A program made the translations under genes and the position numbers. A stretch of DNA of 64,000 nucleotides from Rhodovulum tesquicola (lineage in GTDB: Bacteria > Pseudomonadota > Alphaproteobacteria > Rhodobacterales > Rhodobacteraceae): positions 290,972 through 354,971 of the forward strand of contig NZ_JAMYDV010000001.1 in NCBI RefSeq assembly GCF_024128855.1, in the 5' to 3' direction. Below are positions 10,136 through 57,425 of the stretch, one piece after another. The notes under the pieces are model-generated. The model had not been told where the DNA came from and did no database searches. It saw only the letters and a program-made list of their open reading frames with translations. Numbering within the stretch: the first letter of the stretch is position 1; each line of letters opens with the position of its first letter.

Positions 10136-10156
10136 GTCGATGCGGTCCGGGCCGGA

Positions 10157-10522: not shown

Positions 10523-10551
10523 GTATAGGGGATTCCCCCTCGCCTTGTAAA
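10523..10551 (-). promoter_or_regulatory. Candidate rpsO promoter
   Basis: On the minus strand TTTACA, 17 bases, CTATAC (or TATACG with 18). The spacer holds the small palindrome GGGGAATCCCC. It would start transcription some 90 bases before rpsO, giving a leader long enough for the self-regulation known for S15. Confidence 0.6.
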
Positions 10552-10561
10552 GGGCCGGGTG

Positions 10562-10861
10562 TCAGGGGGCGGCGCTTTCCTGGATCTCCCGGGCGACCTG
10601 GCCCGCCCATTCGCCGATGACCGGGATGAAGTCGATCTGGCTGAGCGAATAGGCGATGATCGAGACCAGCGCGGTCGCACCGACGACCGTGCCAAAGCCC
10701 ATCGCAAGCCCGCGCAGGAACTGCACCGCCAGGATCCGGCGCACCGAGCCGTGGATCACGAAGAAGCGTTGGCCGTTAAGGGCCTGCACCTCGCGCCGCA
10801 GGGCGGCCACCTCGCTGGCAAGGTCGGTATCCGGGCGGGGCGCTGGGGTCGGGTCAGGCAT
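10562..10861 (-). CDS. Small membrane protein, DUF5665-like
   Basis: 99 residues. A charged N-terminus (Ala, Pro, Asp, Arg) runs into a short coiled-coil-like stretch (LASEVAALRREVQAL), then FLRGLAMGFGTVVGATALVS begins one long hydrophobic segment, and IPVIGEWA lies near the end. This order, with the FLRG...GFGT and PVIGEW motifs, is what I remember of DUF5665 proteins, whose role is unknown. Probably inner-membrane, N-terminus in the cytoplasm. It sits upstream of rpsO on the same strand, across the promoter of rpsO. Confidence 0.75.
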   Translation of the reverse strand: MPDPTPAPRPDTDLASEVAALRREVQALNGQRFFVIHGSVRRILAVQFLRGLAMGFGTVVGATALVSIIAYSLSQIDFIPVIGEWAGQVAREIQESAAP

Positions 10862-10934
10862 CGGGGCTCGCTGGCGGCTTCGGCGGGTGGGGTCAGCCTA
10901 GCCAAGGCGGCGGCCAGCGCCAAGCCCGGCGCCG

Positions 10935-11492
10935 TCAGGCTCCGGCGGCCAGCGCGGCAGGGAATTGCGCCGCCGGCACAAGGCTGACCATCGACAGGTC
11001 CAGACCGGCCCCGCCGCTGACCACGGCAAGCGGCATCCCGTCCAGCAGGATCGTCGCGTCTTCCGCCCCGGTATCCGAGGGGCCGACCGACAGCACCGGA
11101 TCGGGATGCGCCTCGGCGTCGTAGACGACGAACAGCGCGTCCTCCGCCTCGTCATAGGTGTCGATCAGGGTGGGCGCGCCGCTGGTCATGGCCAGCCAGT
11201 CGTCAAGGCTCGACCCGGCGGATGCGGCGGCGTCATGCGCGCCTTCGGCCACCGCGTCGCAGGCGGCCTCATCCGCCAGATAATGTGCAAGATCGGCCTC
11301 GGATTCCGCGAGTTCATCCGTCGAGACCGCGTGACGCAGCAGATCCTCGAACCCGAAGCCGAAGGCCGGCGTCTCGCCGTCAGGCTCACCGGCTTCGTCA
11401 TCGGGCGCGTCGTCCTCCGAGTCGAGGACACCGCCGAAATCGACGGTGGAACTGACCATCATCAGGCCCAGCAGAGTTGCAAAAGTAATCAT
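10935..11492 (-). CDS. Acidic hypothetical protein with one N-terminal hydrophobic segment
   Basis: 185 residues, very rich in Asp, Glu and Ala. An N-terminal hydrophobic stretch (MITFATLLGLMMVSS) is followed by an acidic linker (DSEDDAPDDEAGEPDGE). The last 65 residues (VVYDAEAHPDP, then ILLDGMPLAVVSGGAGLDL) resemble a domain I have seen in other Rhodobacteraceae surface or calcium-binding proteins. No enzyme motif. AAGGA stands eight bases before the start. Function unknown; membrane-anchored or exported is the likeliest placing. Confidence 0.7.
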   Translation of the reverse strand: MITFATLLGLMMVSSTVDFGGVLDSEDDAPDDEAGEPDGETPAFGFGFEDLLRHAVSTDELAESEADLAHYLADEAACDAVAEGAHDAAASAGSSLDDWLAMTSGAPTLIDTYDEAEDALFVVYDAEAHPDPVLSVGPSDTGAEDATILLDGMPLAVVSGGAGLDLSMVSLVPAAQFPAALAAGA

Positions 11493-11736
11493 CGTCCGAT
11501 CCTTCGCAATTTCCTACTCGCCGCCCATCATGGACGCCACCCGTTTCGACCATACTCCTGGCAAGGCGGCGGCAGTAAGGCGGCGCGGTTAACTGGTAAA
11601 CGGATCCGCGGCATTTCCCGCCCCATGCGGCCATCGCCGCGCATCGCCGCGTCCGACAGGGGGCGCAAGGCACTGAAACGGCGGGTTTTTCAGGCGTTCA
11701 ACTTTCGCGTGTCATGGTTAATGCGGCTGCTTGGGC

Positions 11737-12645
11737 TCACCCGTCTCGGCCCCGCCCCTCGAAGAAGGGCAGAAAGCTGTCCAGAACCGCGCCGGGGTTC
11801 TCTTCCATCGCGAAATGCCCCGACCGGCATGCGGCGTCGCGCACATCGCCCGCCCAGGCGCGCCAGATCTCGGCGGGCCGCCCGGTGCGCGCGGGAAAGC
11901 CCGTCTCGGCCCATAGGAACATCACCGGCGCCGCGATGCGCGCGCCCGCCGCGCGGTCGGCCTCGTCGATGCGACGGTCGGTCGTGGCCCCCGCGCGGTA
12001 ATCGGCGCACATCGCGGCGATCCGGGCGGGGTCGGCGGCCTGCCTGCGATAGGCCGCCAGTGCGGCGGGCGGGAACACGTCCAGAGATTTCGCCAGCGTC
12101 CAGCTTGCCAGCGTGTGCTCGACATAGCCCACGGGATCGGCGCCGATCATCCGCTCGGGCCAGGGCGCGGGCTGGGCAAGGAAGGTCCAGTGATAGGCCC
12201 TGAGCGCCAGATCGGCATTCCACGCAGCCCAGAAATCGCCCGTCGGCACGATCTCGATGATCCCCAGCCGGTCCACCCGCTCCGGCGCGTCCAGCGCCAG
12301 CCGATAGGCCACCCGCGCGCCCCGGTCATGGCCCAGCAGATGCGCCCGGCCGATCCCCAGCGCATCCATCAGCCCGGTGATGTCGCGCGCCATCTCGCGC
12401 TTGGAATAGACATTGTGGGCCACGTCATCAGGCGGCGCGTCGCTGTCGCCATAGCCGCGCAGGTCGGGCACGATCACATGGAACCGCTCGGCCAGCGCGG
12501 GCGCCACGTTCAGCCAGCACATGTGGTTCTGCGGATAGCCATGCAGCAGGATCAGCGGCGCGCCCCGCCCCGCCCGATGCACCGACAGCGTGATGCCGTT
12601 GGTGGCGATCCGTTCGCATGTGAAACCCGGCAGGTCCGATGTCAT
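11737..12645 (-). CDS. Alpha/beta hydrolase of the haloacetate (fluoroacetate) dehalogenase type
   Basis: 302 residues with clear similarity, from memory, to fluoroacetate dehalogenase. The nucleophile elbow is GHDRGAR with Asp107; Arg108 and Arg111 are the carboxylate-binding pair, His152-Trp153 (YHWTFLAQPAP) the halide site, and His277 (RSGHFAMEE) the catalytic base. Where the known enzymes have a third catalytic Asp (DILPT) this protein has Glu131 (EIVPT). It may therefore be a dehalogenase with an altered triad or an epoxide-hydrolase-like relative. It stands alone, with about 240 bases to the next gene downstream, so context does not name a substrate. Confidence 0.8.
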   Translation of the reverse strand: MTSDLPGFTCERIATNGITLSVHRAGRGAPLILLHGYPQNHMCWLNVAPALAERFHVIVPDLRGYGDSDAPPDDVAHNVYSKREMARDITGLMDALGIGRAHLLGHDRGARVAYRLALDAPERVDRLGIIEIVPTGDFWAAWNADLALRAYHWTFLAQPAPWPERMIGADPVGYVEHTLASWTLAKSLDVFPPAALAAYRRQAADPARIAAMCADYRAGATTDRRIDEADRAAGARIAAPVMFLWAETGFPARTGRPAEIWRAWAGDVRDAACRSGHFAMEENPGAVLDSFLPFFEGRGRDG

Positions 12646-12684
12646 GGCGCGCCCTCCCGGGCGCAGCCTAGGACCGGGCCGCCG

Positions 12685-13191
12685 TCACGTCCACAACTCC
12701 GGTTGCTGCGCATAACCGATGTAAAGCGGGTGTTTCGGCTGGCCGTCCCTTGTCAGCCCCAGATGGAACAGCGGCCGCCCGGTCGCGCGCAACAACCGCT
12801 CGACCGCCCGGCCGCGGTCCAGATGCGCGCCATGGCTGCCCCAGGCGCAAACGATCCGGTCGGCCCAGGGCGCGCTGTCGCGGATCGCGGCATCGTTTGC
12901 CGGGCCGATGGGGTCGGCGGCGGCGCGCATCACCCTGGGGTCGGTGGCCCGGAAGGCAAAGATGTTGGTCACCCGGAACGCGCCGAAGCCCAGCGCGCGG
13001 GCGCGCCGCTCGCAGCGTTCCACGGTCGGGTCGTTCTGCAGCTCGGTCGCGGTCGAGGGGTTCAGCATCACGAACAGCGCCTTCGGCCCGGCCGGATCCC
13101 AGATGCGGGTCAAGAGGTAGCGATAGGTTTCGCAGGGGGAATAGACCGCCTCGGACGCGGCATCGCCCTTCTGGTGGGTGCGGGTTATCAC
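12685..13191 (-). CDS. DUF1643 protein
   Basis: 168 residues of a family without known activity. The recognisable parts are the N-terminal YRYLLTRIWD, the ALFVMLNPSTA motif and NDPTVERCERRAR, followed by VTNIFAFRATDP and a CAWGSHG stretch. No membrane segment or signal. Its ATG overlaps the stop of the phosphatase gene by four bases, so the two are made together. A link to phosphatase action cannot be inferred beyond that. Confidence 0.85.
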   Translation of the reverse strand: MITRTHQKGDAASEAVYSPCETYRYLLTRIWDPAGPKALFVMLNPSTATELQNDPTVERCERRARALGFGAFRVTNIFAFRATDPRVMRAAADPIGPANDAAIRDSAPWADRIVCAWGSHGAHLDRGRAVERLLRATGRPLFHLGLTRDGQPKHPLYIGYAQQPELWT

Positions 13192-16857: not shown

Positions 16858-16950
16858 CGATGCTATCCTTCCAGATAAGCGCCCCTCGTTGGGGAGGGGT
16901 GTCCCACCGCCGCCATTACGCCCCTTCCCCCTCTGGCGCAAGGGGCAAAG
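16858..16950 (-). ncRNA. serC leader RNA (alphaproteobacterial serC motif)
   Basis: Three hairpins in tandem on the serC side: GCCCCTT...AAGGGGC, CCCCTC...GAGGGG, and GCTTATC...GATAGC whose loop and arm contain the AAGGA of serC. This agrees with the published serC motif of alphaproteobacteria, described as upstream of serC-serA with its last stem covering the ribosome binding site. It probably controls translation of serC. The ligand or effector is not known to me. Confidence 0.75.
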
Positions 16951-44453: not shown

Positions 44454-45404
44454 TCAGAACGGAAAGGCAACGCCCAGTTGCAGGTATCGCGTCTCGAAAT
44501 CGCCGTTACGTTCCAGATAGACCCCCAGATTGGCCATGCCGCCCCCCTGCATCTGGCGCGCAAGGCCCAGGCCCAAGACCGCGGTATTGGCCTCGGGATA
44601 GCGGTCGGGAATATTCGCCAGCTGGTCGGAAAACAGGGTGAACGCGTTCCCCGGCGCAAAGCCCGTCACCAGCGCCGAGGGCCGTTGCGGCGGGCGTTTC
44701 CCGAACTCGTGCACCAGCGCGACAAAGGCCCATGGGGTGATCGTCCGGCCCTGCCCGATCGCGACCTCGCCCGAAACGTCGATCCCGTAGAACAGGCTCC
44801 GGCTGACCCGGGTCTCCCGGTCGAGCATCGTGGCGAATTGCGTATGCGCCTCCTGCGTCAGGCCAAGGATCTGGCCGCCGCCGAAATGGCCCACGCTCAG
44901 CCCCGGCTGGCGGACCAGCGGGGCATGGATCCGCGCGTGGATCTCGACCATGTGGCCGTCCCATCGGTCGATATTGCCCAGAAAGCTGTTGCGGAACCGC
45001 TGGCCGCTGACGCTGAAGCCGACCTGCGCGACATAAGTCTCGCGGATCTGGAACAGATCGACACCGAACCCCAGGCTGTCGGCGCGAAGATCCTGAAAAA
45101 TCTGCTGATACTCGACATCGGACCGCCCGGCCGCAAGGCGGAACACCAGGCGCCGGTCGTCCCGCGGGCGGGTCATCAGGGCAAGATCGACCCCCGTCAG
45201 CGTGACCTCGGCATCCGTGGCAAGCGCCGTGTTGCGCGGATCGGTTGCCGCGCCAAGGCCCCGGAATGTCAGCGCCCGCTCCTGCCCCGCGGCCAGATCC
45301 TGCACCCCCAGCGCCGGACCCGCCAGCCAGTCCGGCCCGGCGCGCGCAGGGGCCGCGCAGGCCATGCCGAAAGCGACAAGAACGGCCGGGAAAATGCGGA
45401 TCAT
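44454..45404 (-). CDS. Outer-membrane beta-barrel-like protein
   Basis: 316 residues, no family name found. Sec signal peptide (MIRIFPAVLVAFGMACAAPA, cleaved after ARA). The rest alternates short polar and hydrophobic stretches as in barrel strands (YVAQVGFSVSGQRF, TPWAFVALVHEFG, TAVLGLGLARQM), and the last residues LQLGVAFPF end in Phe, the usual mark for insertion by BamA. It resembles autotransporter-type barrels without a passenger. AAAGGA is eight bases upstream. Divergent from the giant two-gene operon, sharing a 245-base regulatory gap, so a working link is possible but unproven. Confidence 0.7.
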   Translation of the reverse strand: MIRIFPAVLVAFGMACAAPARAGPDWLAGPALGVQDLAAGQERALTFRGLGAATDPRNTALATDAEVTLTGVDLALMTRPRDDRRLVFRLAAGRSDVEYQQIFQDLRADSLGFGVDLFQIRETYVAQVGFSVSGQRFRNSFLGNIDRWDGHMVEIHARIHAPLVRQPGLSVGHFGGGQILGLTQEAHTQFATMLDRETRVSRSLFYGIDVSGEVAIGQGRTITPWAFVALVHEFGKRPPQRPSALVTGFAPGNAFTLFSDQLANIPDRYPEANTAVLGLGLARQMQGGGMANLGVYLERNGDFETRYLQLGVAFPF

Positions 45405-45442
45405 TGCGGCGGTCCTTTCCGGGCGCAAGGGAGCGGGCAACT

Positions 45443-45473
45443 CCCTTGACTTGTGCCAAGGGCTCCGTATCCT
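45443..45473 (+). promoter_or_regulatory. Candidate promoter and overlapping operator of the giant operon
   Basis: TTGACT, 16 bases, TATCCT, about 175 bases before the first giant gene. The -35 box lies within the dyad CCCTTG-N8-CAAGGG (45443-45462), so a repressor or activator at the dyad would meet polymerase directly. It is one of the best sigma70-type promoters in the window. Confidence 0.6.
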
Positions 45474-45649
45474 TTCCATAGATTGTTCCTCGCAGGCCGA
45501 ATTCGCAAGATAATTGCGTCTTTGGGGGGATTGACGACACGCCCGCAAAGGGCGGGGCGCGTGCTTTTCCTGTTGCCCAGGTTTCCTGTCCGTCACACCT
45601 GCCCCGGATGCCGGTCCGCCGCGCCCCGGGCCTTCGAGGGAGGGCGAAG

Positions 45650-48600
45650 GTGAAGCTCGCGGTCGCCTTCTGGGAACAACGTGCCCCCAAATCCTATTTC
45701 TACCTGCTGACGCCGGACGGGGTCGTGCCGCGGACGGGGGGCTGGTTCGGGATCTTCATCCATACCCCCGCGCCGCAGGATACCACGCGGCTGGCCTATC
45801 TCTCGCATAACCTCAAGATGCTCCAGAACCCGATGCTCTACTTCGTGCAGAGCTTCGTCTTCTTCGAGACCGGGCTGGGCGAGGGCGAGATCAAGGATAT
45901 CGTCGCGGGACTCGAAGCCTGTGACTGGTCCGCCATCGGCGCGGCATCGCTGGCCTGGGTGCCCGACACCGCGCCGGTCGCCGCCCTGCCGATGGTGCCG
46001 CTTGTCGACCGCCGGACCAAACGCTTCGCCGTTCTGCTGGACGCGCCCGAGACCCGCCCGCTGGTCCTGCTGGAGGACGGCGCGCAACCGGCCTCGCTGC
46101 GGCTGGCGGCCGGGGCGCGCGCGAAGATCGAGGTAGACGCCAACGCCGCCGATGACGGCCTCGTGCTGAGTTGCGACGCCGGTTTCGGCCTGCTGCGCGG
46201 CACGCCCAAGGGCAAGCCCGCGCCGCCCCTGTTCCGCGTGCCGCCCGGCACCGCGGTCCAGATCGACGCGCAGGGCGCCGCGGCGGGCTGCCTGCGGGCG
46301 GTGGGCGCGCTGGCCATGCCGGTTTCCGATCTTGTGGTCGGGTTCCGCTACGAGCTTGGCGCGCGCGGGCCGCTGGCCGCTCCGGCGCTGAACGCGCCCG
46401 ACGGGCTGGACGGGCATGCGGCCACGCTCTGCCTCTCGCCCAACGCGGTGCTCGACCCCGCGCGCAGCGGGTTCGCGCTGGACCCGGCCGGGGCGGGGTT
46501 CGCGTCGGCCTTCCGCACCCGGGGCGGCGGCACCATCGCCCTTGCCCCCGATCCCGGGGGCGGCAGTCGGCTTGTCTTCAACCGCGGCAACGGGGCCATG
46601 CGCTACCTCACGCTTGACGGCCCGTTCGTCGCTTCGCCGCCCCCGGGGGCGGGCGACAGCGCGTTCCTGTGCGGGCTGTCGGGCGTCGAATACATCGCGC
46701 TGGAGGCGGGCGACCGCATGGCCTTTTCCGCCGGTCAGCCCGCCGCGATCACCGTCTCGCCCGGCAGCGCCGACCCGGTCTTTGCCGCGGATCCGGCCGG
46801 GGCCGCGACCACCGCGCAGATGACGATCCGCGCCGACACGGCCCCCCGCGCCTATGTCAGCGAACCCGACAATTCGCCCTTCTTCGCCCCCGGATCGGCG
46901 GGGTCCGATCCGCTTCAACTGGGCTATCTGCCGCTCAGCCGGATCGCGCTGGCCCCGGGCGCGGCCTCGGCCTTCTTTCCCGCCCTGCCCTACGCGGCGA
47001 TGCCGGGGCTCGGCGCCGCGCAGGATCCCGCGCTGGTCCGCGCGTTCGAGCTGCACCACCTCAACCCCGCGCGCCGCGCCGCGATCGCCGCCGCGGCGAC
47101 GGGACAGGCCGCCACGATGGCCGGGGCCACCACCTGCGCGGTGACGCCGCAGGGCCACAAGGCGACGTTCCGGAACGGGCAATGGACCGCGCTTGACGTG
47201 GCCGCGATGCAGGGCCCCGAGACCCAGGTCGCGATCCGGTTCGAGGCAGACCCGGGCAAGGCGCTGCCCGATGCCTTGCAGGACGCGTTCCTGACCAACC
47301 AGCAATTCGTGGTGATGACGCAGGACCGCGGCAATCTCGGCCGCTTCACCCCGAAAATCCGGATGAGCGGCTGGGAATTCGACCTGGATCTGTCGGTCAA
47401 CACCACGATCGGCAGCTATCGCAACGTGCTGATCTTCAAGTCGGCCAGCGCCTCGCTCGCGCAACTGGCCGCCACGCCGGACCTCTGGACCGGAACCGCG
47501 GCCTTCAACAGCGAGGCCGATCCCGAGGGCGCCTATCTCTCGGCCTGGCTGACCGCCTATCTGGACGAGGCACGCCGGATCCATGACGGCGGGCGCGGCG
47601 TGGCAAGCCTTGGCGCCTTCTGCGCGTTGATCGACGATCCGGACTGGAACGGGGTGCTGGCGCTGAACGTGGGCGTCGATCCCGCCGCCCTCGCCCCCGA
47701 GATCGAGGCGCTGCTGGCCGGCATCGACGACAGCCTGTTCGCCGCGCATCATATCGGCAACCTCGTCAACCATGTGGCCCCCAAGGCAGGCGGCGACTTC
47801 GCGCTGAACAGTTCGGTCTTCGGGCTGATCCGCTATACCGACCCGGCCTATCGCGGGGCGCAGGACGACATCGCCTATCTGCCCACGCCGGACGATTTCG
47901 ATTTCCGCGTGCTGACGCTGGAAGCGGTGTTCGAGGATGCGCGGCTGACGCATTTCTCGAACCGCTCGCTGATCGTCGCGAACCGGCTGTTCGGCGACCG
48001 GGTGCTGGCCGCCGCCCCGGACGGCCAGACCGCCCGCAACACGCTGATACTGATCGGCACCTACAGGACGACGAACGGCGTTCCCAGCTACACCTTCGCC
48101 ACCGCGCCGGGCAGCGCGGGCCAGTTCTTCCTGTCCGGCAATGCGCTGGACCGCGTGACCGTGACAAAGGCCACGATGGCGGTCACATCGCAGCCCGGCG
48201 CGGGTTATGTCGCGCGGTTCGGGATGTGGGGCAGTCTCGGCCTGCTGGCGGACCCGGCTTTCGACCTTCTGTCCTTCGAACGGCTGGCCTTCCAGAACCT
48301 CGCCATCGAGATGCGCCTGACCCCCGCCCCCGCGCAGCCCCCGGGCGGCAAGACCGTGTTCGACCGCAGCTTTGCCTTCCGCACCGACGGGCTGGTATTC
48401 GAGGATCTGGGGCTCAGGCAGATCGACGCCGGGCAGGCCGCGGACACGGATGAAAACCTCGTGCGCACCGGCTCGCTGCTGGCGGCCTTTCCGCTCCGGA
48501 TCAAGGGCTTCCGCTCGGGCGCGGCGACCGCCCCGCCCGAAAGCCTTGGCTACCGGGTGCTGCACACCACCGCCCCCGCGGGCGTGTCGGCGGCCGATCT

Positions 48601-49033
48601 GGATAGCGGGCCATGGCACGCGCTGGCCTTCGAGATGACGCTTGGCGCAAGCGGCGCGCTGGCGGGCAAGGCGGTGATCGCGGCCGAATTGCTGCTGGCC
48701 TGGCAACCCGATGGCGCAGGGCAGCCCGATATCGCGCCGCTTTTCCGGCTGTCGGGACCGGACGGCATCGCGCTGAGCTTCGACATCGAGGGCGTGGTGA
48801 AATTCGGCGCGCGGGACGTTCTGCTGAACCGGATCCGGCGCAGCGACGCCTCGCCCGAGTCCGACCTGTTCGTGATGATCTTCGAAAGCATCGGGCTGTC
48901 GGTGCTGATGCTGTCCTTCCCGCCCGCGGGCACCACCAATGTCTACCTGATGGGCGGGACCAGCACGGGCGAGGCGGTCAATCCGATCCTGGGCTGGGTC
49001 GGCGGCTACCAGGCGCGCGAGGCGGGCAAATGA
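45650..49033 (+). CDS. Giant hypothetical protein 1 (1127 residues)
   Basis: No family recognised. The GTG start (MKLAVAFWEQRAPKSYFY) is chosen because GGGAGG stands six bases before it; an ATG 14 codons upstream has no ribosome site. There is no signal peptide, no convincing membrane helix, few cysteines (about seven), and much Ala, Gly, Pro and Leu. Long parts look like beta strands with turns. Two more structured spots are SGWEFDLDLSVNTTIGSYRN (about 583-602) and the C-terminal VNPILGWVGGYQ. Codon choice matches the neighbours, so it is not a recent arrival. Its TGA overlaps the ATG of the second giant gene, a sign of strict co-production. Confidence 0.85.
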   Translation: MKLAVAFWEQRAPKSYFYLLTPDGVVPRTGGWFGIFIHTPAPQDTTRLAYLSHNLKMLQNPMLYFVQSFVFFETGLGEGEIKDIVAGLEACDWSAIGAASLAWVPDTAPVAALPMVPLVDRRTKRFAVLLDAPETRPLVLLEDGAQPASLRLAAGARAKIEVDANAADDGLVLSCDAGFGLLRGTPKGKPAPPLFRVPPGTAVQIDAQGAAAGCLRAVGALAMPVSDLVVGFRYELGARGPLAAPALNAPDGLDGHAATLCLSPNAVLDPARSGFALDPAGAGFASAFRTRGGGTIALAPDPGGGSRLVFNRGNGAMRYLTLDGPFVASPPPGAGDSAFLCGLSGVEYIALEAGDRMAFSAGQPAAITVSPGSADPVFAADPAGAATTAQMTIRADTAPRAYVSEPDNSPFFAPGSAGSDPLQLGYLPLSRIALAPGAASAFFPALPYAAMPGLGAAQDPALVRAFELHHLNPARRAAIAAAATGQAATMAGATTCAVTPQGHKATFRNGQWTALDVAAMQGPETQVAIRFEADPGKALPDALQDAFLTNQQFVVMTQDRGNLGRFTPKIRMSGWEFDLDLSVNTTIGSYRNVLIFKSASASLAQLAATPDLWTGTAAFNSEADPEGAYLSAWLTAYLDEARRIHDGGRGVASLGAFCALIDDPDWNGVLALNVGVDPAALAPEIEALLAGIDDSLFAAHHIGNLVNHVAPKAGGDFALNSSVFGLIRYTDPAYRGAQDDIAYLPTPDDFDFRVLTLEAVFEDARLTHFSNRSLIVANRLFGDRVLAAAPDGQTARNTLILIGTYRTTNGVPSYTFATAPGSAGQFFLSGNALDRVTVTKATMAVTSQPGAGYVARFGMWGSLGLLADPAFDLLSFERLAFQNLAIEMRLTPAPAQPPGGKTVFDRSFAFRTDGLVFEDLGLRQIDAGQAADTDENLVRTGSLLAAFPLRIKGFRSGAATAPPESLGYRVLHTTAPAGVSAADLDSGPWHALAFEMTLGASGALAGKAVIAAELLLAWQPDGAGQPDIAPLFRLSGPDGIALSFDIEGVVKFGARDVLLNRIRRSDASPESDLFVMIFESIGLSVLMLSFPPAGTTNVYLMGGTSTGEAVNPILGWVGGYQAREAGK

Positions 49034-52000
49034 GCACGGGGTTCGAGGACGACATCCGGGCCGCGATCCAGACCGGCCGCGCGCTCGCGCTGGATTTCGA
49101 CAGGCTCATCAAGATCGCCAAGGATCCCAAGGCCGAGAAAACCGAGGTCGAGGTCACGCTGGGGCTGGAGCTGTCCTCGGTCTACCAGCTTGCCGGGATC
49201 GTGCAGGGCGCCGATCTGCTGGGCCTGCTGCCCCCCGGCCTGCTGCCACCCCCCGCCCCGCAACCGCACACGCCCTATGTCACGCTTGAAACGGTCACGA
49301 TCACGCTGTTGACCAGGACCAGGACCATCGGCGCTGTGACCTGCGCGCTTGGCTTCGGGGCCAAGTCCGGCACGGCCTTCGACGGGTTGCACTGGACCAT
49401 CGCCCGGATCGGGACCGAAAACTTTACGGTCGGGATCACCGGGCTGAATGTGGGCCTCGACAAGCCGACCGGCCCCGACCGCAGCCTGATCGCAAGCTCG
49501 GCGGGCGCGGTCGATATCGCGAAACTGGCCCTCGACGTGACCGGCAGCTATCCCGACGGCCGGATCGAGATCGCCCAGCCCGCAGGCAAGACGCTGGTGC
49601 TGGCCGATTTCCTGACGGATTTCGGGCTGCACGCGCAGGATTTCCTGAACAGCCTCACGCTGAAGGATCTGGATTTCGTAGTCGTGGTGCCGACGAAATC
49701 GGGCTCGATCAAGGCCAAGCTGGTCACCCAGACCGGCGCGGCGCTGGTGCTGGTGCAGGGCGACGGCGCCAGGGCGCTGCTGTCCCTGGCCGAGGCCAGC
49801 CTTGACTGCGCCTATTCCGCGACCCGGACCGATGTCGCGATCAAGGGCCAGTTCCTGGTGATGGAGGCGCTGAGCTTCGACATCGCCGCCAGCTACAAGG
49901 ACGACCGCCAGAAACCCAAGGGCAAGGCGGCGGCCCCGGGCAGCACCTGGGTCTTTGCCGGTGCGATCAACGTGGCCGATACATGGCAACGCCTGCATCC
50001 CGGCCAGACGCCGCCGCCCCTGCCGCTGATCGGGATCGCCGATCTGGCCGAACTGTTCGTGCCCGGCAGCGCCGCCCGCCTCCCCGACGAGATCGGCCAT
50101 CTGTCGGTCGCCGAGCTTTCTGCCCGCTACACCCGCGACGGTCAGGGCGCCACGGCCTACCGGCTCAAGGGCGCGTTCGACGGCACATGGCAACTGGCGG
50201 GCGGACTCCGCGCAACCCTGTCCATCGACCTGACCGAGAAGCACAAGCTGTTCACCGCCACGTTCGACATGGACGGCTTCCATTTCGACCTCTCGCTTGA
50301 CCTGACCGAGGGCAAGGACGCGCAACAGGCCTATACCATCCGCGCCCGCATCGACGCGATCATCGACCGCCAACCGCTCAAGATCGCCGGCAGCTATGAC
50401 AGCACCGGCAAGCTGGCGCTGACGCTGGAGGCCGAGGTGAACCTTGCGATGATGATCGCCTGGTTCGTCGGCTCGGCCACCGGACAACGCTACTACGTCG
50501 TGCCCGAACCTTGGGACGACATCCTCAAACAGATCAGGCTGCCCAAGGACCTCGCGCTTGCGATGGATACCAAGACCGGCGCGGTCACGCTGACGCTGGG
50601 CCAGATCGGCCTCGATTTCCTCGCCTTCAGGATCGACGGCATCTCGCTGGTCTATACCCGCGCGGCGGCCACGGGCGGCAAGAGCGGGATCACCATCGAA
50701 CTGACCGGCCGGCTGCCCGGCGGCAGCGCGCTCGCCTGGGATCCCGCGACCGAAACCCCGCCCGAGATCCCCGGAAAGGGCGGCGCGCTGGTCGAGATCC
50801 GCACCGCCGCCGCGGGCCAGCATTTCGCCTTCGACACCGTGCCCAGCGGTATCGCCGATGCCGTCGGGACGGTCGGCAAGTCGCTGGCCGCCTCGTCCTG
50901 GACCGGCCCGCCCGCGCTTATGCATTTCGACCCGAACGCGGGCTGGCTGTTCGCGGCGCATGCCCGGATCCTCGGCCAGGCCGACCTCGAATTCGTGTTC
51001 AACGACCCCGACATCTACGGCGTCCTGATCACTGTCACCAAGGGCAAGAACGACAAGCTGAACGTCCTCGACGGGCTTTATGCCGAGGTGCTCTATCGCA
51101 AGGTCACCGACGCGGTCGGCGTCTACGAGGGCACGCTGACCCTTCCGAAAAGCATCCAGAGCATCAATTTCGGCGCGTTCGAGATGACGCTGCCGTCCTT
51201 CTACCTCGCGATCTACACCAATGGCGATTTCAAGATCGACGTGGGCTTCCCCCATGACCTCGATTTCTCGAAATCCCTGTCGCTGACGGTCGAGATCTAT
51301 TCGGGCGCGGCCGGGTTCTACTACGCGAAACTCGACGGGCTCGACCCCAAGGGCCTGCCGCAGGTGCCACAGGACAAGGGCATCTTCAGCCCGGTCACCG
51401 AGATCGGCATCGGGCTTCAGGTCGGCATCCAGAAGGGGTTCGAAAGCGGGCCGCTCAGCGCGCGGTTCGCGGTGATGGTGCAGGGCCTGTTCCAGGGCAC
51501 CTTCGCCACCTATCACGACTTCGCCAGCGGCCAGACGGACGAGTTCTACGACGTGCGCGCGACGGTCGCGGTCTTCGGCCAGCTTGTCGGGGCGATCGAC
51601 TTCGCCATCATCAAGGCCACGCTCGAAGTCCGGATCTTCGTGCGCGCCGACATGCGCATCATCGCGCATCGCGCGACCGAGGTTGCCTTTGCCGCGGGCG
51701 TCGATGTCCGGGTGACGGTGGTCATCAACCTGTTCCTGTTCCGGATCTCGATCCACCTGTCGTTCAGCATGGTGGTCCACGGCTCGGCGACATTCGGACA
51801 GGATACCCATGCCCTCTGGGACGATGCGTTGACGCTGGAAATGTTCGCCCTGTCCGGCACCGCCCCGCCCCCCGTCTGGCAGCCGGTCGCGCCGACCGGC
51901 GGGCCGGTGCCGCTGACCGTATATGTCCTTCCGGCCCTCAGCGCGGGGCTGGACTATACCGACGCCGCCCACGCCACGGATCGCTGGATCCAGGTCGCCC

Positions 52001-55000
52001 AGCTTGCGCTGTCGAACCCCATGGCAGCCCCCGGAACCGCCGATGCGGGGGACGGCTCCTACGCCGCCTTCCTGACCGGGCTCATGCGCTGGGGCCTGTT
52101 CGCGGCCTCGGGGCAGGCGCAGCCGGGCGGTGCCGCGGCCGACCAGTCGGTGGTGGACAAGACCACCGTCACGCGCGACGACATCGCCGCGCTGCTGGCC
52201 ACGCTCGCCCGTGGCGACCGGCCCGGCCTGGCCGAGATCCAGGCCCTGTTCAAGGCCGGGTTCGAAACCCGCATCGGCAAGCCGACGACACCCGCCGACG
52301 GCCAGACGCTGGGCGTGGGCTTCTTCCCCGCCCTGCCCGGCATGAAAATCACCCTAACGCTCGGCACCGGGCCCGCGGTTCCCTTGGAACAGACCCCGCG
52401 CGGGACCGCCTCCCCGACCGGGCCGCTGCCGTCCCGAGCGCTGGCCCACCTGGGCGAACCGCTTCCGGCAACCCCGCCCTCCGCGCCGGTCGAGGAGGTG
52501 TTGGCCGACTACGTCACGGTTGCCCTGCGCGCCGGGCTGCAACAGGCCCATGACGCGACCGAGCTGTTCCCCGAAGCCGGGCCGTCCCCGCAGATCGCCG
52601 CGATCCTGTCCCGCCTGTCCCCCGCCCTTGCCGGGATCTCGGGCCTGACCTCGCGCTTCATGCTGCATGGCACGCGCCAGCCCGCGGCGGACGGTTCGCT
52701 ACACCCGCTTTACGCGCTGACGGGCCAGCAGGCGGTTCTGGGCGCGGGCGACATGGCGGCCGATACGCTTGTCCTCGGCGTCGGCCTGCCCGCCGCCGAC
52801 CAGGCGCTGTGGAATGTCCGGATCGAGGGCGGCGGCGAGAGCCTCGCCTTTTCCAGCGCCGATGCCGAACCGCTGGTCAAGGCACCCGCCGCGCTGCCCG
52901 CCGCGCCGGATCTGCCCGACCCGAAACCCGCGCTCACGCTCCAGCCCGCCTTCGATATCAGGCCGCTGCGCTTTGCCCTGCCCGCCGGGATCGCCGCGAC
53001 CGGCGGCGGAACCGTCTGGCGCCTGCCGCCCGCCCTGACCGACCTGCTCTCGCGCGCCCCCACCGCGGCCTTCGGGCTGTTCACGCTGCCCGATGGCGAC
53101 CCCGAGGCCGAGGGCACCCCGGTTCCCGCCGCCGATTTCGACTGGGCGCTCGCCCTCGATTTCGACGTCGCGCGGATCCCGCTGCCCGGCGCGGCCGATC
53201 CGAAATCGCCCGAATACCTTGGCAACACCTATGCGCTGGCCAGCGTGAACCAGAAGGGGCTGGCCCTGCTGCAACGGCTGATTGCCGATCTGTCGGCCCC
53301 GACGCCCACGGCCCGCGTCTCGGCGCTGCGGCTGGGCTATCGCACCGGCCCGGCGGGGCAGGCGGCAAGCCTGACGCTGGGGGATATCGACTTCACCGAT
53401 ACCTTCCTCGTGCAAAGCAATTTCTCGACCGAGACGCGCCCGCCGCAGGTCGTCATGGCGCTGGAAAGCGCGGGCGCCGCGCCCCCCGATCCAAAACAGG
53501 CCCTTGGCTTTCTCGGCAAGCTCTGGAGCGGGGGCGTGACCAATTCGGGCGGCTATTTCCTCTGCCATGCGGGCGACGGAAGCGGCCTGCCCGCGGCGCT
53601 GTTCGGATCCGGCGGGCGGGCCACGCTGACGCTGGTGATCGGGCTCGTACATCCGGGCACGGGGCCCGTGCCACTCGCCCCCTATGTCAACGCGGTGCTG
53701 GGCAGCGGCCTGACGCCCGGCGACGCCCTGTTCGTCGCGTCCGACAGCCTGAACGATGCGCATCCGCTGACCCTGCCCGGCCAACTGGCCATCCAGCTTA
53801 CGCGCAGCAGGCCCGCCGAGCCCGGCGCCGCCGATCTGGGCGCGGCGCTGGACCAGCTTTACAACCTCTACGCGGGCCGGATCACGGCCATCGACGGCAC
53901 GCCCCTGCCCGATGGCGAGGCAACGGTCTTCGGCCCCGACAAGGCCGCGCAGGATGGCGATGATCTGGTCTATCGCCACAGCTTCCCGCTGGTGCCCCAT
54001 GCGGGCAACCTGCATGCCGTGGCCGATGGCGGCGCGCTGCCCGAGGCGGACAACCCCTATGCCGCGATGGGCAAGCGCGTCGATCTCGGCCTTGCCCGCG
54101 TCGATCTGTTCGGCAATCTCTGGGCGGGCTACGACGATGGCGGCACGCTGTCGCCTGCCTATGACGATCCGCTGATCGCCCCGACCCGGCTGCCCTATCT
54201 GTCCTTCAGCTATGCCTTCGAGGGCGGGAAGACGCCCCGTCTGGTGGTGACACCCGTCCTGACCCCGCCGGTCTACCCGGCAGGCGAACCCGCGCAGCAA
54301 CGCAGATCGGCCGACCTCGCGGCCTATGCCGCCGCGTATTACCAGATCGCCGCGATCGAGGGCCGCGAACAGGTTTCGCTGACGCTCGCCACCAGCCTCG
54401 TGCCCGGCGCGGCGCTGCCGGTCGAGGCCGCGACGCTCGCCGCGAACCTGCTGACCGCCTACAAGGCGATCCTCGCCGCCCCCATCCTGACCGCGCCGCC
54501 CGCCGCGCCGCCGCCCGAACAGGTGCTGACCCCCCTTTCGGCGGCCATCGACGTAAAGGGGCTGGCCCCCGACCTCGCGCTGCCCCTGACCGCCAGCCTG
54601 ACCATCGCGCGGTCCGGCCCCTTTGCCCCGGACGTGCCCGCCGACAGCGCGGTGCGCAGCGTCACCGTCCCGCTGCCGCCCCGCACCGATGCGGCGGGCG
54701 CACAGGGTCAACCCGCCGCGCCGCTCTCGCTCGATGCGTTCAAGGCGGGGTTCAACGCCGCCTTCGCCGCACAGGACCGGGTTCTGGCCGCCGGGGCCAA
54801 CCGCACGGCCAGTTCCGCCGACAGCGGCCGCCAGCTCTGGGTGCTGCGCTACGGCAAGACCGGGATCGCGCCGCGTTTCGACACCGCCACGCCGCCCGCC
54901 TGTTTCGCCCCGCGCCCGCTGTCCAACCGGCTGATCTCGCGCAATGTGCAGGTCCCGACGCTTGCCGCCGACGGCACGCTGTCGCCGCCCCCGGGCACGC

Positions 55001-56997
55001 AGGTCGCCGCGCGCGACATCGACATCGACGCGGTGATGCGCCGCGTGCTTGCCGCGCTCGACGGCATGTTCGCGCCACAACTGGCGGTCCCGGTGGCGCT
55101 GGTGAACCGCGAGGCGCTGAACCGGCTTGCCGCGGCCAAGAAGGCCATCGTCGAAAAGCTGGTCGCCTTCGTGACCGAGATCCGCCTCGACGGAACCGAC
55201 ACCGCCCCGGCCGGTGACGCCGCGCTGGCCGCCGCGAAGGACCGCTACCGGCAGGAATGCCTGATCGAGATGGGCAATTTCTACGAGATGGCCTCGGTCG
55301 CGGTGCTGGACCTGAAGACCGCGCTTGGCGGGCTCGCCAGCCCCCAGCCGATGAACCTTTTCGGCCAGCCCTCGCCCGGCACCGGCCCGAAAAACGCGCC
55401 CCCGACAACGGACAATTATTCGCTCACCGGGGGCAAGGCCGCGATGACACCCTCGGGCGGCCCCATGGCCATCGGTCTTTTCGCCCGCAACAAGACGCTC
55501 AGTTCGACCTTCACCGCCGATCTGACCTTCACCATCGGCGCCATCGAGCATGACCTGAGCGAGGTCCGCATCGGCGAGACGGTCTATACCAGCGGCGGCT
55601 GGCTCAGCTTCCTCGACCCGCCCGCGCCGCTGGCCATCGGCGAGGTCGCGTTCCCGATCCCGCTGCGCGCCTTCCCCACGCCGCCCGACCTTGGCCAGCA
55701 ACAGGCCCGCGGCCTGCTTGATCCGGGCGCGCTGCCCAAGACCGCGGCCGAAACGCTGGCGCTGGCCAAGTCCTGGGCGCTGGACGGCAGCTATCGCCAC
55801 GGCTTCGTCGCCCAGGACCGGGTCGAGCTTGAGGTGACGGTCAACCAGGGCAACCGGCAGGGCCTGCTGTTCGCAACCGGCCTCGACGTGATCGACGCGC
55901 TGATCGCCTTCGACCGGCTGCTGCCCGAGCTTCAGGCGCTGTTCGTCGCCCAGGGCCTTGCCGCCATCCGCAGCCCCGACCGCGCGGACAACCCGGTGCT
56001 CAAGGCCGCGCTCGACAGCTTCGCGACACTGGCGCAGGACATCGCCGACAGCGGCTGGTCCCCGATCATGCCCGAGGCGTTTGCCGAGATCGAGGCCACG
56101 GGCCTTGTCCGCCGCAGCCGCCGCTTCGCCATCGAGGACGGGGTGCAGAAGCCGGGCGATCCATGGATGACCCGGATCAGCATCAGCGACAAGGGCGCCG
56201 CGGATCTCGACATCCTGCCGATGATCGGGATCGACGGCTACCGCACGCAGGTCGCGGCAAAGGACGCCAGTTCCGCCAGCTACACCTATCTCGACGCGCA
56301 GACCGGCAAGCCGCTGACCGAGGAGCAGGGCCGCGCGCTGGCCGAACGCCGCGTCATCGTCGCCCCGGCGGACAAGGGCGCTCCCTTCGGCAGCGCGCTG
56401 AACGTGATCGACCGGCAGGACGGCACGATGGCGATGCAGATCCTTCGCAATGCCCGCTTCCAGGAGGCGTTCCGCTACGCGACCGACTGGGTCCGCTATC
56501 CCACCCCGGTCGCCCCGCAACTCGACATCGCCACCCCGATCGACATCGCGGACCTTGCCGGGGCGCCGGGCAAGCCGCGCCCGCTGGCGGCCCATCTTGC
56601 CGCGCTGCACGCCGCGCTGGTCACGGGCAGCGGCACGGGCGAGACGCTGGAGGGCATGGTTCAGCTTGCCGTCGGCTTCGACCTGCCCCTGACCGCCAGC
56701 GGCCCCGCGACGCTTGCCCTGCCGCCGGTGCGGTTGCCGGTGCTCCTGCGCCTGCCCACCGCCGTCACGCTGGGCGCATCGGACCCGGCCCCGCCCGCCT
56801 TCCTCGACGAGGTGGCGCAGGACATCACCCGCTGGCTCGCCGCGATGGACATCACACCCACGACCCGCCCCGATCTCTGGGCCGAGGCGTCGCTTGGCCT
56901 TGATCTGTCGCTGTTCAGCGGCGCGGCGTCCGGCGGCCCGCCGATCCTGCGCCTGCGCAACCTGACCCTCGCCTGCACCGCCATCGCGGCGCCCTGA
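49030..56997 (+). CDS. Giant hypothetical protein 2 (2655 residues)
   Basis: No family recognised. No signal peptide. A helical start is followed by a Pro-rich link (LPPGLLPPPAPQPHTP, about 67-82), then some 850 residues of alternating hydrophobic/polar strands. This part closes with a very hydrophobic strand pair (VDVRVTVVINLFLFRISIHL, about 892-911). The second, longer half mixes strands with helical segments near 2002-2060 (MRRVLAALDGMFAPQLAVP) and 2289-2313. Only about six cysteines. No RTX nonapeptides, no LysM, no nuclease or protease signature seen. A huge beta-rich scaffold, tube or lipid-groove protein would fit, but this is inference. Begins in the ATGA overlap with giant gene 1. 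Confidence 0.85.
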   Translation: MSTGFEDDIRAAIQTGRALALDFDRLIKIAKDPKAEKTEVEVTLGLELSSVYQLAGIVQGADLLGLLPPGLLPPPAPQPHTPYVTLETVTITLLTRTRTIGAVTCALGFGAKSGTAFDGLHWTIARIGTENFTVGITGLNVGLDKPTGPDRSLIASSAGAVDIAKLALDVTGSYPDGRIEIAQPAGKTLVLADFLTDFGLHAQDFLNSLTLKDLDFVVVVPTKSGSIKAKLVTQTGAALVLVQGDGARALLSLAEASLDCAYSATRTDVAIKGQFLVMEALSFDIAASYKDDRQKPKGKAAAPGSTWVFAGAINVADTWQRLHPGQTPPPLPLIGIADLAELFVPGSAARLPDEIGHLSVAELSARYTRDGQGATAYRLKGAFDGTWQLAGGLRATLSIDLTEKHKLFTATFDMDGFHFDLSLDLTEGKDAQQAYTIRARIDAIIDRQPLKIAGSYDSTGKLALTLEAEVNLAMMIAWFVGSATGQRYYVVPEPWDDILKQIRLPKDLALAMDTKTGAVTLTLGQIGLDFLAFRIDGISLVYTRAAATGGKSGITIELTGRLPGGSALAWDPATETPPEIPGKGGALVEIRTAAAGQHFAFDTVPSGIADAVGTVGKSLAASSWTGPPALMHFDPNAGWLFAAHARILGQADLEFVFNDPDIYGVLITVTKGKNDKLNVLDGLYAEVLYRKVTDAVGVYEGTLTLPKSIQSINFGAFEMTLPSFYLAIYTNGDFKIDVGFPHDLDFSKSLSLTVEIYSGAAGFYYAKLDGLDPKGLPQVPQDKGIFSPVTEIGIGLQVGIQKGFESGPLSARFAVMVQGLFQGTFATYHDFASGQTDEFYDVRATVAVFGQLVGAIDFAIIKATLEVRIFVRADMRIIAHRATEVAFAAGVDVRVTVVINLFLFRISIHLSFSMVVHGSATFGQDTHALWDDALTLEMFALSGTAPPPVWQPVAPTGGPVPLTVYVLPALSAGLDYTDAAHATDRWIQVAQLALSNPMAAPGTADAGDGSYAAFLTGLMRWGLFAASGQAQPGGAAADQSVVDKTTVTRDDIAALLATLARGDRPGLAEIQALFKAGFETRIGKPTTPADGQTLGVGFFPALPGMKITLTLGTGPAVPLEQTPRGTASPTGPLPSRALAHLGEPLPATPPSAPVEEVLADYVTVALRAGLQQAHDATELFPEAGPSPQIAAILSRLSPALAGISGLTSRFMLHGTRQPAADGSLHPLYALTGQQAVLGAGDMAADTLVLGVGLPAADQALWNVRIEGGGESLAFSSADAEPLVKAPAALPAAPDLPDPKPALTLQPAFDIRPLRFALPAGIAATGGGTVWRLPPALTDLLSRAPTAAFGLFTLPDGDPEAEGTPVPAADFDWALALDFDVARIPLPGAADPKSPEYLGNTYALASVNQKGLALLQRLIADLSAPTPTARVSALRLGYRTGPAGQAASLTLGDIDFTDTFLVQSNFSTETRPPQVVMALESAGAAPPDPKQALGFLGKLWSGGVTNSGGYFLCHAGDGSGLPAALFGSGGRATLTLVIGLVHPGTGPVPLAPYVNAVLGSGLTPGDALFVASDSLNDAHPLTLPGQLAIQLTRSRPAEPGAADLGAALDQLYNLYAGRITAIDGTPLPDGEATVFGPDKAAQDGDDLVYRHSFPLVPHAGNLHAVADGGALPEADNPYAAMGKRVDLGLARVDLFGNLWAGYDDGGTLSPAYDDPLIAPTRLPYLSFSYAFEGGKTPRLVVTPVLTPPVYPAGEPAQQRRSADLAAYAAAYYQIAAIEGREQVSLTLATSLVPGAALPVEAATLAANLLTAYKAILAAPILTAPPAAPPPEQVLTPLSAAIDVKGLAPDLALPLTASLTIARSGPFAPDVPADSAVRSVTVPLPPRTDAAGAQGQPAAPLSLDAFKAGFNAAFAAQDRVLAAGANRTASSADSGRQLWVLRYGKTGIAPRFDTATPPACFAPRPLSNRLISRNVQVPTLAADGTLSPPPGTQVAARDIDIDAVMRRVLAALDGMFAPQLAVPVALVNREALNRLAAAKKAIVEKLVAFVTEIRLDGTDTAPAGDAALAAAKDRYRQECLIEMGNFYEMASVAVLDLKTALGGLASPQPMNLFGQPSPGTGPKNAPPTTDNYSLTGGKAAMTPSGGPMAIGLFARNKTLSSTFTADLTFTIGAIEHDLSEVRIGETVYTSGGWLSFLDPPAPLAIGEVAFPIPLRAFPTPPDLGQQQARGLLDPGALPKTAAETLALAKSWALDGSYRHGFVAQDRVELEVTVNQGNRQGLLFATGLDVIDALIAFDRLLPELQALFVAQGLAAIRSPDRADNPVLKAALDSFATLAQDIADSGWSPIMPEAFAEIEATGLVRRSRRFAIEDGVQKPGDPWMTRISISDKGAADLDILPMIGIDGYRTQVAAKDASSASYTYLDAQTGKPLTEEQGRALAERRVIVAPADKGAPFGSALNVIDRQDGTMAMQILRNARFQEAFRYATDWVRYPTPVAPQLDIATPIDIADLAGAPGKPRPLAAHLAALHAALVTGSGTGETLEGMVQLAVGFDLPLTASGPATLALPPVRLPVLLRLPTAVTLGASDPAPPAFLDEVAQDITRWLAAMDITPTTRPDLWAEASLGLDLSLFSGAASGGPPILRLRNLTLACTAIAAP

Positions 56998-57057
56998 CCA
57001 TCCCGATCTCCCGGCCCCCCCTTGCCCGCTCTCGCCGGAACACGGTTTCGCGAGGGC

Positions 57058-57134: not shown

Positions 57135-57425
57135 ATGGACATTATGAAACCGACCCTCGGGCTTGGCGCATCGCTGGCCTGTGCGCTGAGCGTGATGGCA
57201 ACCGCCCCGGCCCATGCCCAGGAGATGGAGAAATGCTACGGCGTGTCACTGGCCGGGCAGAACGACTGCGCGGCCGGCCCCGGCACGACCTGCGCGGGCA
57301 CGTCGAAGGTCGATTACCAGGGCAATGCCTGGACGCTGGTGCCCACCGGCACCTGCACCCAGATCGAATTGCCGGGTGATCGCATGGGCGCGCTGGAACC
57401 GCTGACCCGCGACATCCCGTCCTGA
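57135..57425 (+). CDS. bufA: Bufferin-type RiPP precursor (DUF2282)
   Basis: 96 residues. A Sec signal peptide (cleavage after APAHA, about residue 28) is followed by the DUF2282 mature part with four cysteines: Cys34 (MEKCYG), Cys45 ([10 protein letters not shown]), Cys53 (TTCAGTS) and Cys74 (PTGTCTQ). Bufferins are periplasmic copper-handling peptides in which a DUF692/DUF2063 enzyme pair converts some cysteines into thiooxazoles. The order precursor-DUF692-DUF2063-DoxX here is that of the Caulobacter bufferin operon. AAGGAG lies seven bases before the ATG; a second ATG three codons later is possible. Export before folding would place the product in the periplasm. Confidence 0.9.

What the first reader, a model, noticed from the sequence alone, without database searches (positions are those of the whole stretch)
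45443..56997. Two giant overlapping genes of unknown function behind one regulated promoter
An 11.3-kb operon encodes proteins of 1127 and 2655 residues, joined by an ATGA overlap, intact, with host-like codon choice and no known domain I can name. Both lack signal peptides and are low in Cys and rich in strand-like segments. Keeping 11 kb of unbroken frames in a compact genome argues for selection. The size, the coupling, the dyad on the promoter and a divergent barrel protein suggest a large assembly (scaffold, tube, surface layer or transfer machine). Function is inference.
Basis: partly seen in the sequence, partly recalled or inferred. Interest (0 to 1): 0.85.

Follow-up and report, generated by a model that had tools for sequence, protein, structure and literature searches.

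The report
Giant paired proteins with swappable enzyme
Two giant bacterial proteins of unknown kind are inherited side by side in very different bacteria, often with a gene for a DNA-cutting-type enzyme between them, which suggests an undescribed mobile system, perhaps for conflict with viruses or other microbes.

Summary
The two giant genes are real: P1, 45650-49033 (+), 1127 aa; P2, 49030-56997 (+), 2655 aa; ATGA overlap. Neither matches Pfam, NCBIfam, PHROGs or PDB sequences at E<=1. The pair is an old, mobile, sparse unit. Separate P1 and P2 searches of 72,556 plasmid records return the same 8 records. Of 27 loci with P1, 24 have P2 beside it or one to two genes away, across five phyla; the other 3 hold P1 fragments only. 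P1 and P2 are fused, wholly or partly, in 2 genomes, and their divergences correlate (r=0.90). In 11 of the 24 loci (7 of 19 lineages) the gene between them is an enzyme: a DNase-I-like EEP protein or a metallo-beta-lactamase-fold (MBL) protein, two unrelated folds in one slot. In the window's genus the slot is empty and the pair travels with a divergent outer-membrane-barrel gene (same 2 of 16 genomes). The promoter hexamers are conserved; the claimed dyad is not above chance. Best reading: the core of an undescribed conflict-type system with an exchangeable phosphodiesterase or nuclease. The unit is well supported; the function is inference. The structure models were too poor to use (pLDDT 38-40).

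The parts
45650..49033 (+). P1, 1127 aa, GTG start; conserved over most of its length, no known family
   Evidence: most whole relatives align along nearly all of the profile, at 23-67% identity to the window in the 10 aligned
49030..56997 (+). P2, 2655 aa, overlaps P1 by ATGA; no known family
50362..52419 (+). P2 core (aa 445-1130), the most conserved part, with invariant TNG(D/N)F...D.GFP and long alternating strands
   Evidence: 17 sequences; period-2 z=7.0; strands in a low-confidence model
52597..56997 (+). P2 C-terminal conserved region (aa 1190-2655); wholly or partly a separate gene in several relatives
   Evidence: separate in Paenibacillus L011, Tistrella L015 and its congeners L072/L073, G649 L032 and contig L037
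49030..50319 (+). P2 N-terminal 430 aa, mostly unmatched outside R. euryhalinum; no Pfam match
   Evidence: the Embleya blastp match begins at residue 251
44454..45404 (-). Divergent outer-membrane-barrel-like protein, 316 aa, signal-peptide-like start, ends in Phe; cassette member in Rhodovulum
   Evidence: Pfam Autotransporter beta-domain 27.3 bits against cut-off 26; same 2 of 16 genus genomes as P1; one homologous block 44456-56998 against L002 8807-21442
45446..45473 (+). Sigma-70-like promoter, TTGACT-16-TATCCT
   Evidence: both hexamers identical in R. euryhalinum
49030..49033 (+). ATGA stop-start overlap between P1 and P2
   Evidence: the same 4-nt overlap in L002

Best explanation
P1 and P2 are the conserved core of an undescribed, horizontally spreading accessory system. 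Shown: they are one evolutionary unit (together wherever both were found, sometimes fused, co-diverging), and the place between the two genes holds, in many relatives, an interchangeable metal-dependent phosphodiesterase-type enzyme, either a DNase-I-like EEP protein or a ComEC/LmuA-like MBL-fold protein. Inferred: P1 and P2 form one large beta-rich complex that senses or binds a target or carries the enzyme, and the enzyme is the effector that cuts nucleic acid or another phosphodiester. The sporadic, often plasmid-borne, cross-phylum spread and the likeness of two tested MBL enzymes to anti-phage MBL models make a biological-conflict role (phage defence or attack on competitors) the likeliest. 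In the window's Rhodovulum version the slot is empty and an outer-membrane barrel is the cassette partner, so it either uses an enzyme encoded elsewhere or acts by binding or membrane action alone. My estimates: one unit about 0.95; exchangeable enzyme slot about 0.9; conflict function about 0.45. The confidence below is for the whole statement.
For: Unit: tblastn with P2 cores and with P1 in 72,556 plasmid records finds the same 8 records each; 24 of 27 loci with P1 have P2 beside it or one to two genes away; whole fusion in G099 (3327 aa) and P1+P2-core fusion in G649; distance correlation r=0.897 for 18 loci, 0 of 2000 permutations as high. Slot: EEP in Pedobacter x3, Nostoc, G263 and A. 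lipoferum; MBL in Embleya, Tistrella and two congeners, and G697, i.e. 11 of 24 loci. A. lipoferum was looked up after the pattern was seen; its record names the gene endonuclease/exonuclease/phosphatase. Left-out tests with profiles of the other members recover each slot enzyme tested (EEP 1e-4 to 1e-36, MBL 6e-3 to 1e-27), reversed controls at best E=33. Catalytic motifs are whole in all 7 slot MBL proteins (5 loci) and in 3 of 4 slot EEPs checked. Of two MBLs scanned with PADLOC, G697's hits LmuA at 3.5e-12 and Tistrella's hits RTasMBL at 2.4e-5. MBL nucleases recur as anti-phage effectors (PMC12799240, passages read). Mobility: cassette edges at stop codons, 2 of 16 congeners, not found in a relative about 97% identical over a flank; IS elements around it on a conjugative plasmid.
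Against: 13 of 24 loci, the window's included, have no enzyme in the slot. The G263 EEP has all four catalytic motifs altered and no Pfam match. G697's MBL has a lipoprotein-like start and G420's upstream EEP a signal-peptide-like start, which fits an exported role better than an intracellular defence effector. EEP Pfam scores are all below the curated cut-off of 24.5 (23.5 and 22.4; 16.6 for G420; 21.4), and G420's EEP fails the left-out test (E=0.57). P1 and P2 hit no PADLOC model (P1 of the window, P1 and P2 of Lysinibacillus). No assay, no usable fold. Three loci keep only P1 fragments.
Confidence: 0.45

Rival explanations
1. A secreted or lysis-released toxin-like complex: P1-P2 are a giant delivery and binding shell, and EEP, MBL, trypsin-like or papain-like proteins are its catalytic cargo.
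For: Enzyme variety in the clusters: EEP, MBL, a Nal1-like protease upstream in Paenibacillus, a LamG protein with a sub-threshold papain-family match (E=0.099) in Nostoc. LysM in P2 relatives. Large fn3 or LamG proteins beside the pair. Exported-looking enzymes in G697 and G420.
Against: No signal-peptide-like start on the 17 P1/P2 proteins tested from 7 loci; no recurring secretion gene noticed among annotated neighbours; no match of P1 or P2 to a known toxin family in Pfam or NCBIfam.
Confidence: 0.25
2. An envelope-associated beta-groove, a lipid or polymer handling machine, or a surface scaffold (near the first reader's view); the barrel in Rhodovulum is its outer-membrane partner.
For: Long period-2 amphipathic strands in the P2 core; barrel gene tied to the pair in Rhodovulum. 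Generic beta-meander neighbours (LptD, microsomal triglyceride transfer protein, porins) in a Foldseek run whose model is too poor to count.
Against: No export signal by the simple rule; present in Bacillota and Actinomycetota, which by general knowledge lack such an outer membrane; does not explain an EEP/MBL slot; sporadic and often plasmid-borne.
Confidence: 0.15
3. P2 is a very distant branch of DUF6603 (PF20248) giant proteins, and both belong to one larger class.
For: DUF6603 genes also sit in sets of large genes, and in 2 of 7 DUF6603 loci held with wide flanks an MBL gene lies just before them. Weak profile hints, E 0.0027 and 0.009, against 0.17 and 0.032 for reversed controls.
Against: Profile probability 3-11%, not significant over 35 DUF6603-side comparisons; of 17 genomes or records carrying P1 the DUF6603 model rings in one, Embleya, at three places away from the pair.
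Confidence: 0.2

Closest known systems
DUF6603 (Pfam PF20248) giant proteins of Streptomyces, Embleya and Paenibacillus plasmids
   Same: Giant proteins in sets of large genes, in 2 of 7 loci directly after an MBL-fold gene
   Different: No significant profile similarity to P1 or P2; neither P1 nor P2 significant in the DUF6603 loci (best E 0.036)
Anti-phage systems with MBL nuclease effectors (Lamassu, Hachiman, AVAST, DRT; PMC12799240, passages read)
   Same: MBL-fold protein as an exchangeable gene beside an unrelated core; the two MBLs scanned hit LmuA/RTasMBL models
   Different: The core is two giant beta-rich proteins; the window's P1 and P2 have no Pfam match; an EEP protein takes the place in 6 of the 11 loci with an enzyme; no trypsin-MBL pair was seen
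Autotransporter beta-domain proteins (PF03797)
   Same: The divergent barrel gene scores just over the cut-off (27.3 against 26)
   Different: It is a short stand-alone barrel; P1 and P2 match no barrel model and show no signal peptide
Bridge-like/AsmA-type lipid-transfer proteins (recalled, not tested by fold)
   Same: Long amphipathic beta-strand runs
   Different: No match to any Pfam or NCBIfam model

Membership tests
DUF6603 (PF20248) | Match to the curated profile over its cut-off | tested here: not met
   0 Pfam hits at E<=1 for P1 and P2; in 17 genomes/records carrying P1 it rang in one, at three places away from the pair
DUF6603 (PF20248) | Profile-profile similarity of the core region | tested here: inconclusive
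   hhalign probability 3-11%, E 0.0027-0.014
Anti-phage defence systems in PADLOC | Core protein matches a defence-system model | tested here: not met
   P1 of the window, P1 and P2 of Lysinibacillus: 0 hits at E<=0.01; P2 of the window itself was not scanned with PADLOC
Anti-phage defence systems in PADLOC | MBL-type effector related to known defence MBLs | tested here: met
   L036 MBL to LmuA 3.5e-12, L015 MBL to RTasMBL 2.4e-5; in relatives, not in the window
Anti-phage defence systems in PADLOC | Protects against phage | not testable with these tools
   Needs an assay
Phage tail or phage-derived particle | Matches phage protein families or occurs in phages | tested here: not met
   0 PHROGs hits; no match in 50,697 phage records for P1 of the window or the P2 core of Lysinibacillus. 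Viral contigs: none by P1 pattern, one IMG/VR contig by P2 pattern (L037)
EEP superfamily (slot enzyme of relatives) | N, E, GDxN and SDH catalytic motifs | tested here: met
   Whole in L003, L010 and L078 (slot) and L030 (upstream), altered in L029; Pfam scores below the cut-off; motif meanings recalled
MBL fold (slot enzyme of relatives) | HxxxDH and a later HHG motif | tested here: met
   Present in 7 of 7 slot proteins (5 loci) and in the 2 DUF6603-linked ones. Pfam Lactamase_B over the cut-off in 2 of the 6 slot proteins scanned, G697 and L072a; motif meanings recalled
Autotransporter / type V secretion | Signal peptide, passenger and barrel in one protein | tested here: not met
   The barrel protein is 316 aa and matches the barrel only; P1 and P2 match no barrel model and show no signal

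The most novel reading that the evidence does not exclude
P1-P2 is the founding member of a new class of giant two-protein beta-rich carrier or sensor machines, spread by plasmids and other transfer across at least five bacterial phyla, that are loaded with whichever phosphodiesterase (EEP or MBL fold) sits in a dedicated gene slot between the two halves; DUF6603 giant proteins would be a second, parallel branch of the same principle.
Probability: 0.3. Interest if true: 0.88.

Novelty: categorically new. Interest (0 to 1): 0.72.

Why it matters
Two protein families of about 1,100-1,300 and 2,100-4,100 residues, kept together from Bacillota to Bacteroidota, matched no core family model tested here, so some 10-16 kb of coding DNA per carrier is at present blank in annotation. 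The exchange of two unrelated enzymes, EEP and MBL, at one position gives a direct handle on function: it predicts a phosphodiester target and a physical complex, both testable in ordinary laboratory strains. If it is a defence or antagonism system, its core would be unlike the ATPase- or helicase-based ones. The 'new' label rests on missing matches; a good structural model could still place P1 or P2 in a known superfamily.

Tried and rejected
The listed neighbours (a phage host-recognition protein, LptD, porins, MTP) are generic and I use none as evidence.

DUF6603: I recalled that the P2 core reads like DUF6603 and tested it; no significant link, kept only as a rival.

Phage or prophage origin: no PHROG match and no phage record. 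The IMG/VR contig L037 carries the pair, but I did not test whether it is viral.

Empty site: no clean one. The TRAP block ends at window 44437 (to within a base) in three genomes and is followed by different DNA in each; the bufferin block starts at 57040 and is preceded by different DNA in the close relative. The cassette sits between two blocks that are themselves not fixed.

Fused enzyme in P2: EEP and MBL profiles built from the slot enzymes (E<=10) found nothing in the fetched loci beyond the slot, the G420 upstream gene and the DUF6603 loci (circular for the sequences used to build them, hence the left-out tests).

Literature: DUF6603 is in no paper of the library; searches for giant genes or proteins with EEP, MBL, LysM or Azospirillum B510 terms listed no paper that I recognised as describing the pair. 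Of those papers I saw listings only, except passages of PMC12799240 and PMC12419801. The library holds no bioRxiv preprints by its own statement.
Full report
Observation. The window holds two long overlapping frames on the + strand. P1 (45650-49033, 1127 aa from the GTG) and P2 (49030-56997, 2655 aa) share ATGA. Neither matches any model of Pfam, NCBIfam or PHROGs, nor any PDB sequence, at E<=1. Profiles of P1 and of the P2 core find only weak matches among PDB sequences (best E 0.15 and 0.45: a bleomycin-resistance protein and a designed protein), which I take as chance. The frames are under purifying selection against Rhodovulum euryhalinum (dN/dS 0.39 and 0.35, about 67% amino-acid identity).

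A mobile cassette. The window's genus is represented by 16 genomes. P1 occurs in 2 of them, the other being R. euryhalinum, and the divergent barrel gene (44454-45404, minus) in the same 2 of 16. Between these two species one block aligns, window 44456-56998 to L002 8807-21442, 72% identical, with edges at the stop codons of the barrel gene and of P2; the rest of the 23-kb stretch held does not align. A relative that is 97% identical over the flanking TRAP block and 96% over the bufferin block has no match to P1 or the barrel. The cassette is thus barrel plus P1 plus P2. It is more diverged between the two species (72%) than the neighbouring TRAP block (86.7%), which fits separate gain or faster change.

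The pair as a unit elsewhere. Frequencies are low: 5 of 295 genomes of the family (single-sequence query), 6 of 398 of the phylum, 3 of 296 in the Pedobacter phylum, 5 of 385 of the class. Each count includes the genome at the centre, and the samples overlap, so they are not summed. In 72,556 plasmid records the P2 cores of the window and of Lysinibacillus each hit 8 records, and P1 of Lysinibacillus hits the same 8: Azospirillum B510 and A. lipoferum, Tistrella, Paenibacillus, Nostoc, Embleya, Mycetohabitans, Lysinibacillus (the window's P1 at a stricter limit finds 7 of them). None in 50,697 phage records. In all I hold 27 distinct loci with P1 (the window; L002-L005; L010-L016; L026-L037; L072, L073; L078); 24 have P2 beside it or one to two genes away. 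The other three (G379, G588, G525; L031, L033, L034) are P1 fragments without P2 in the 20 kb held, probably decayed. P1 and P2 are one 3327-aa frame in G099, P1 and the P2 core one 1731-aa frame in G649, while P2 is cut into separate genes in Paenibacillus, Tistrella, Mycetohabitans and contig L037. Pairwise distances of P1 and of the P2 core correlate at r=0.897 over 18 loci (0 of 2000 permutations as high; 0.862 without R. euryhalinum). That is strong evidence that the two act together.

The enzyme slot. Between P1 and P2 an extra gene often lies on the same strand. It is an EEP (DNase-I-like) protein in Pedobacter (three genomes), Nostoc, A. lipoferum and G263, and an MBL-fold protein in Embleya, in Tistrella mobilis and two genomes that I infer to be its congeners (two copies each), and in G697: 11 of 24 loci, or 7 of 19 lineages when Pedobacter, Tistrella and Rhodovulum are each counted once. 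The A. lipoferum case was looked up after the pattern had been noticed, and its record names an endonuclease/exonuclease/phosphatase protein. Family scores are modest. EEP: 23.5 (Pedobacter), 22.4 (Nostoc) and 21.4 bits (A. lipoferum) against a cut-off of 24.5, none for G263. Lactamase_B: 32.0 (G697), 23.8 (one congener copy) and 17.4 (Embleya) against 22.7, none for the Tistrella L015 protein or for L072b and L073b; L073a was not scanned. Profiles built without each group recover it all the same: Pedobacter 1e-35, G263 1e-14, A. lipoferum 7e-13, Nostoc 1e-4; Embleya 1e-27, Tistrella group 1e-13 to 2e-9, G697 0.006; reversed controls at best 33. The four motifs of EEP enzymes are whole in Pedobacter L003, Nostoc and A. 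lipoferum and altered in G263; both MBL motifs are whole in all 7 slot proteins (motif meanings recalled). A further EEP-like gene with a signal-peptide-like start lies upstream in G420 (16.6 bits); its motifs are whole but it fails the left-out test (E=0.57). The two MBL proteins scanned resemble those of anti-phage systems (LmuA 3.5e-12, RTasMBL 2.4e-5; and a below-cut-off 6A-MBL match). Two unrelated folds with the same general chemistry in one place is the most informative fact found.

Other neighbours. A family U of 220-290 aa with an internal repeat, in my guess two beta-sandwiches, lies upstream of P1 in 5 of 24 loci (Azospirillum B510, Mycetohabitans, G213, G067, G783), in two copies in three of them. 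Large fn3 or LamG proteins sharing a C-terminal domain lie upstream in Nostoc, Embleya and Tistrella, with a stand-alone form of the domain in G420. Paenibacillus has a gene with a Nal1 C-terminal domain upstream, a protease type. Of six loci whose P2 was scanned, four carry LysM: Paenibacillus, Azospirillum B510, Mycetohabitans and, just under the cut-off (20.8 against 20.9), Tistrella; Nostoc and Lysinibacillus do not, nor does the window.

Structure. Independently of any model, the family-averaged hydropathy of the P2 core alternates with period two far above block shuffles (z=7.0), that of P1 weakly (z=2.0), so the P2 core is very likely an amphipathic beta protein.

Mechanism. Shown: unit, mobility, enzyme slot, beta character of the P2 core. 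Inferred: P1 and P2 assemble into one large complex; the slot enzyme is its effector; the system serves conflict, against phages or competitors. For conflict speak the sporadic, often plasmid-borne spread over five phyla (Pseudomonadota, Bacteroidota, Cyanobacteriota, Bacillota, Actinomycetota), the recurrent MBL effectors known from antiviral systems (PMC12799240, passages read), and the exchange of enzymes. Against it speak the 13 loci without a slot enzyme, the altered G263 copy and the exported-looking enzymes of G697 and G420, which would suit a released toxin-like complex. In Rhodovulum the enzyme is absent and the barrel is the only partner found, so the window itself is the least informative version of the system.

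Comparison. P1-P2 is not a member of DUF6603 by profile tests, though DUF6603 loci show a similar habit, an MBL gene before a giant gene, in 2 of 7 loci. It is not a PADLOC system by its core (P2 of the window not scanned) and not an autotransporter. I found no description in the papers searched. Because neither protein, nor the arrangement, falls in a known kind by these tests, I mark it categorically new, with the warning that a good structure could change this.

Noticed in passing
57135-57425 (+) and following genes to about 59125: DUF2282 gene (Pfam, 91 bits) followed by a 283-aa protein that I take, from recall, for a DUF692-type partner: a bufferin-like operon. The 283-aa gene is in 9 of 16 genus genomes; not part of the cassette.
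   Followed up: partly
16858-16909 (-): serC leader RNA (RF00517), 74 bits.
   Followed up: no
L029 10980-12302 (-): EEP-like protein between P1 and P2 in G263 (blastp to the Pedobacter one 9e-19) with all four catalytic motifs altered: a likely pseudoenzyme kept at full length.
   Followed up: yes
L041 6627-7769 with 7727-12490; L044 6979-8760 with 8789-13030: MBL-fold gene directly before a DUF6603 giant gene in Embleya and Streptomyces clavuligerus; may be a parallel, also undescribed, system.
   Followed up: partly
L013 17426-18106 and 16525-17346; L016 389-1147; L027 4174-4905 and 3085-3948; L028 2970-3632 and 1990-2799; L035 16947-17672: Unnamed family U (220-290 aa, internal repeat) upstream of P1 in 5 of 24 loci.
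   Followed up: partly
L036 15924-16337 and 16377-16799 (-): Two similar small proteins (137 and 140 aa) with a Gly-Gly-like site early in the sequence, upstream of P1 in G697 (by eye).
   Followed up: no
L037 (IMGVR_UViG_2541047519_000001): A contig filed as viral carries the P1-P2 pair, with P2 split in two; whether it is viral was not tested.
   Followed up: no
L031, L033, L034: P1 fragments (901, 290, 254 aa) without P2 in G379, G588 and G525: remnants or domesticated pieces.
   Followed up: partly
45540-45554: Short inverted repeat CGCCC-N5-GGGCG in the leader before P1, present also in R. euryhalinum (read from the alignment).
   Followed up: no
44437: The TRAP-transporter block ends at the same place (within a base) in three Rhodovulum genomes and is followed by DNA in each that does not align with the others.
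   Followed up: partly
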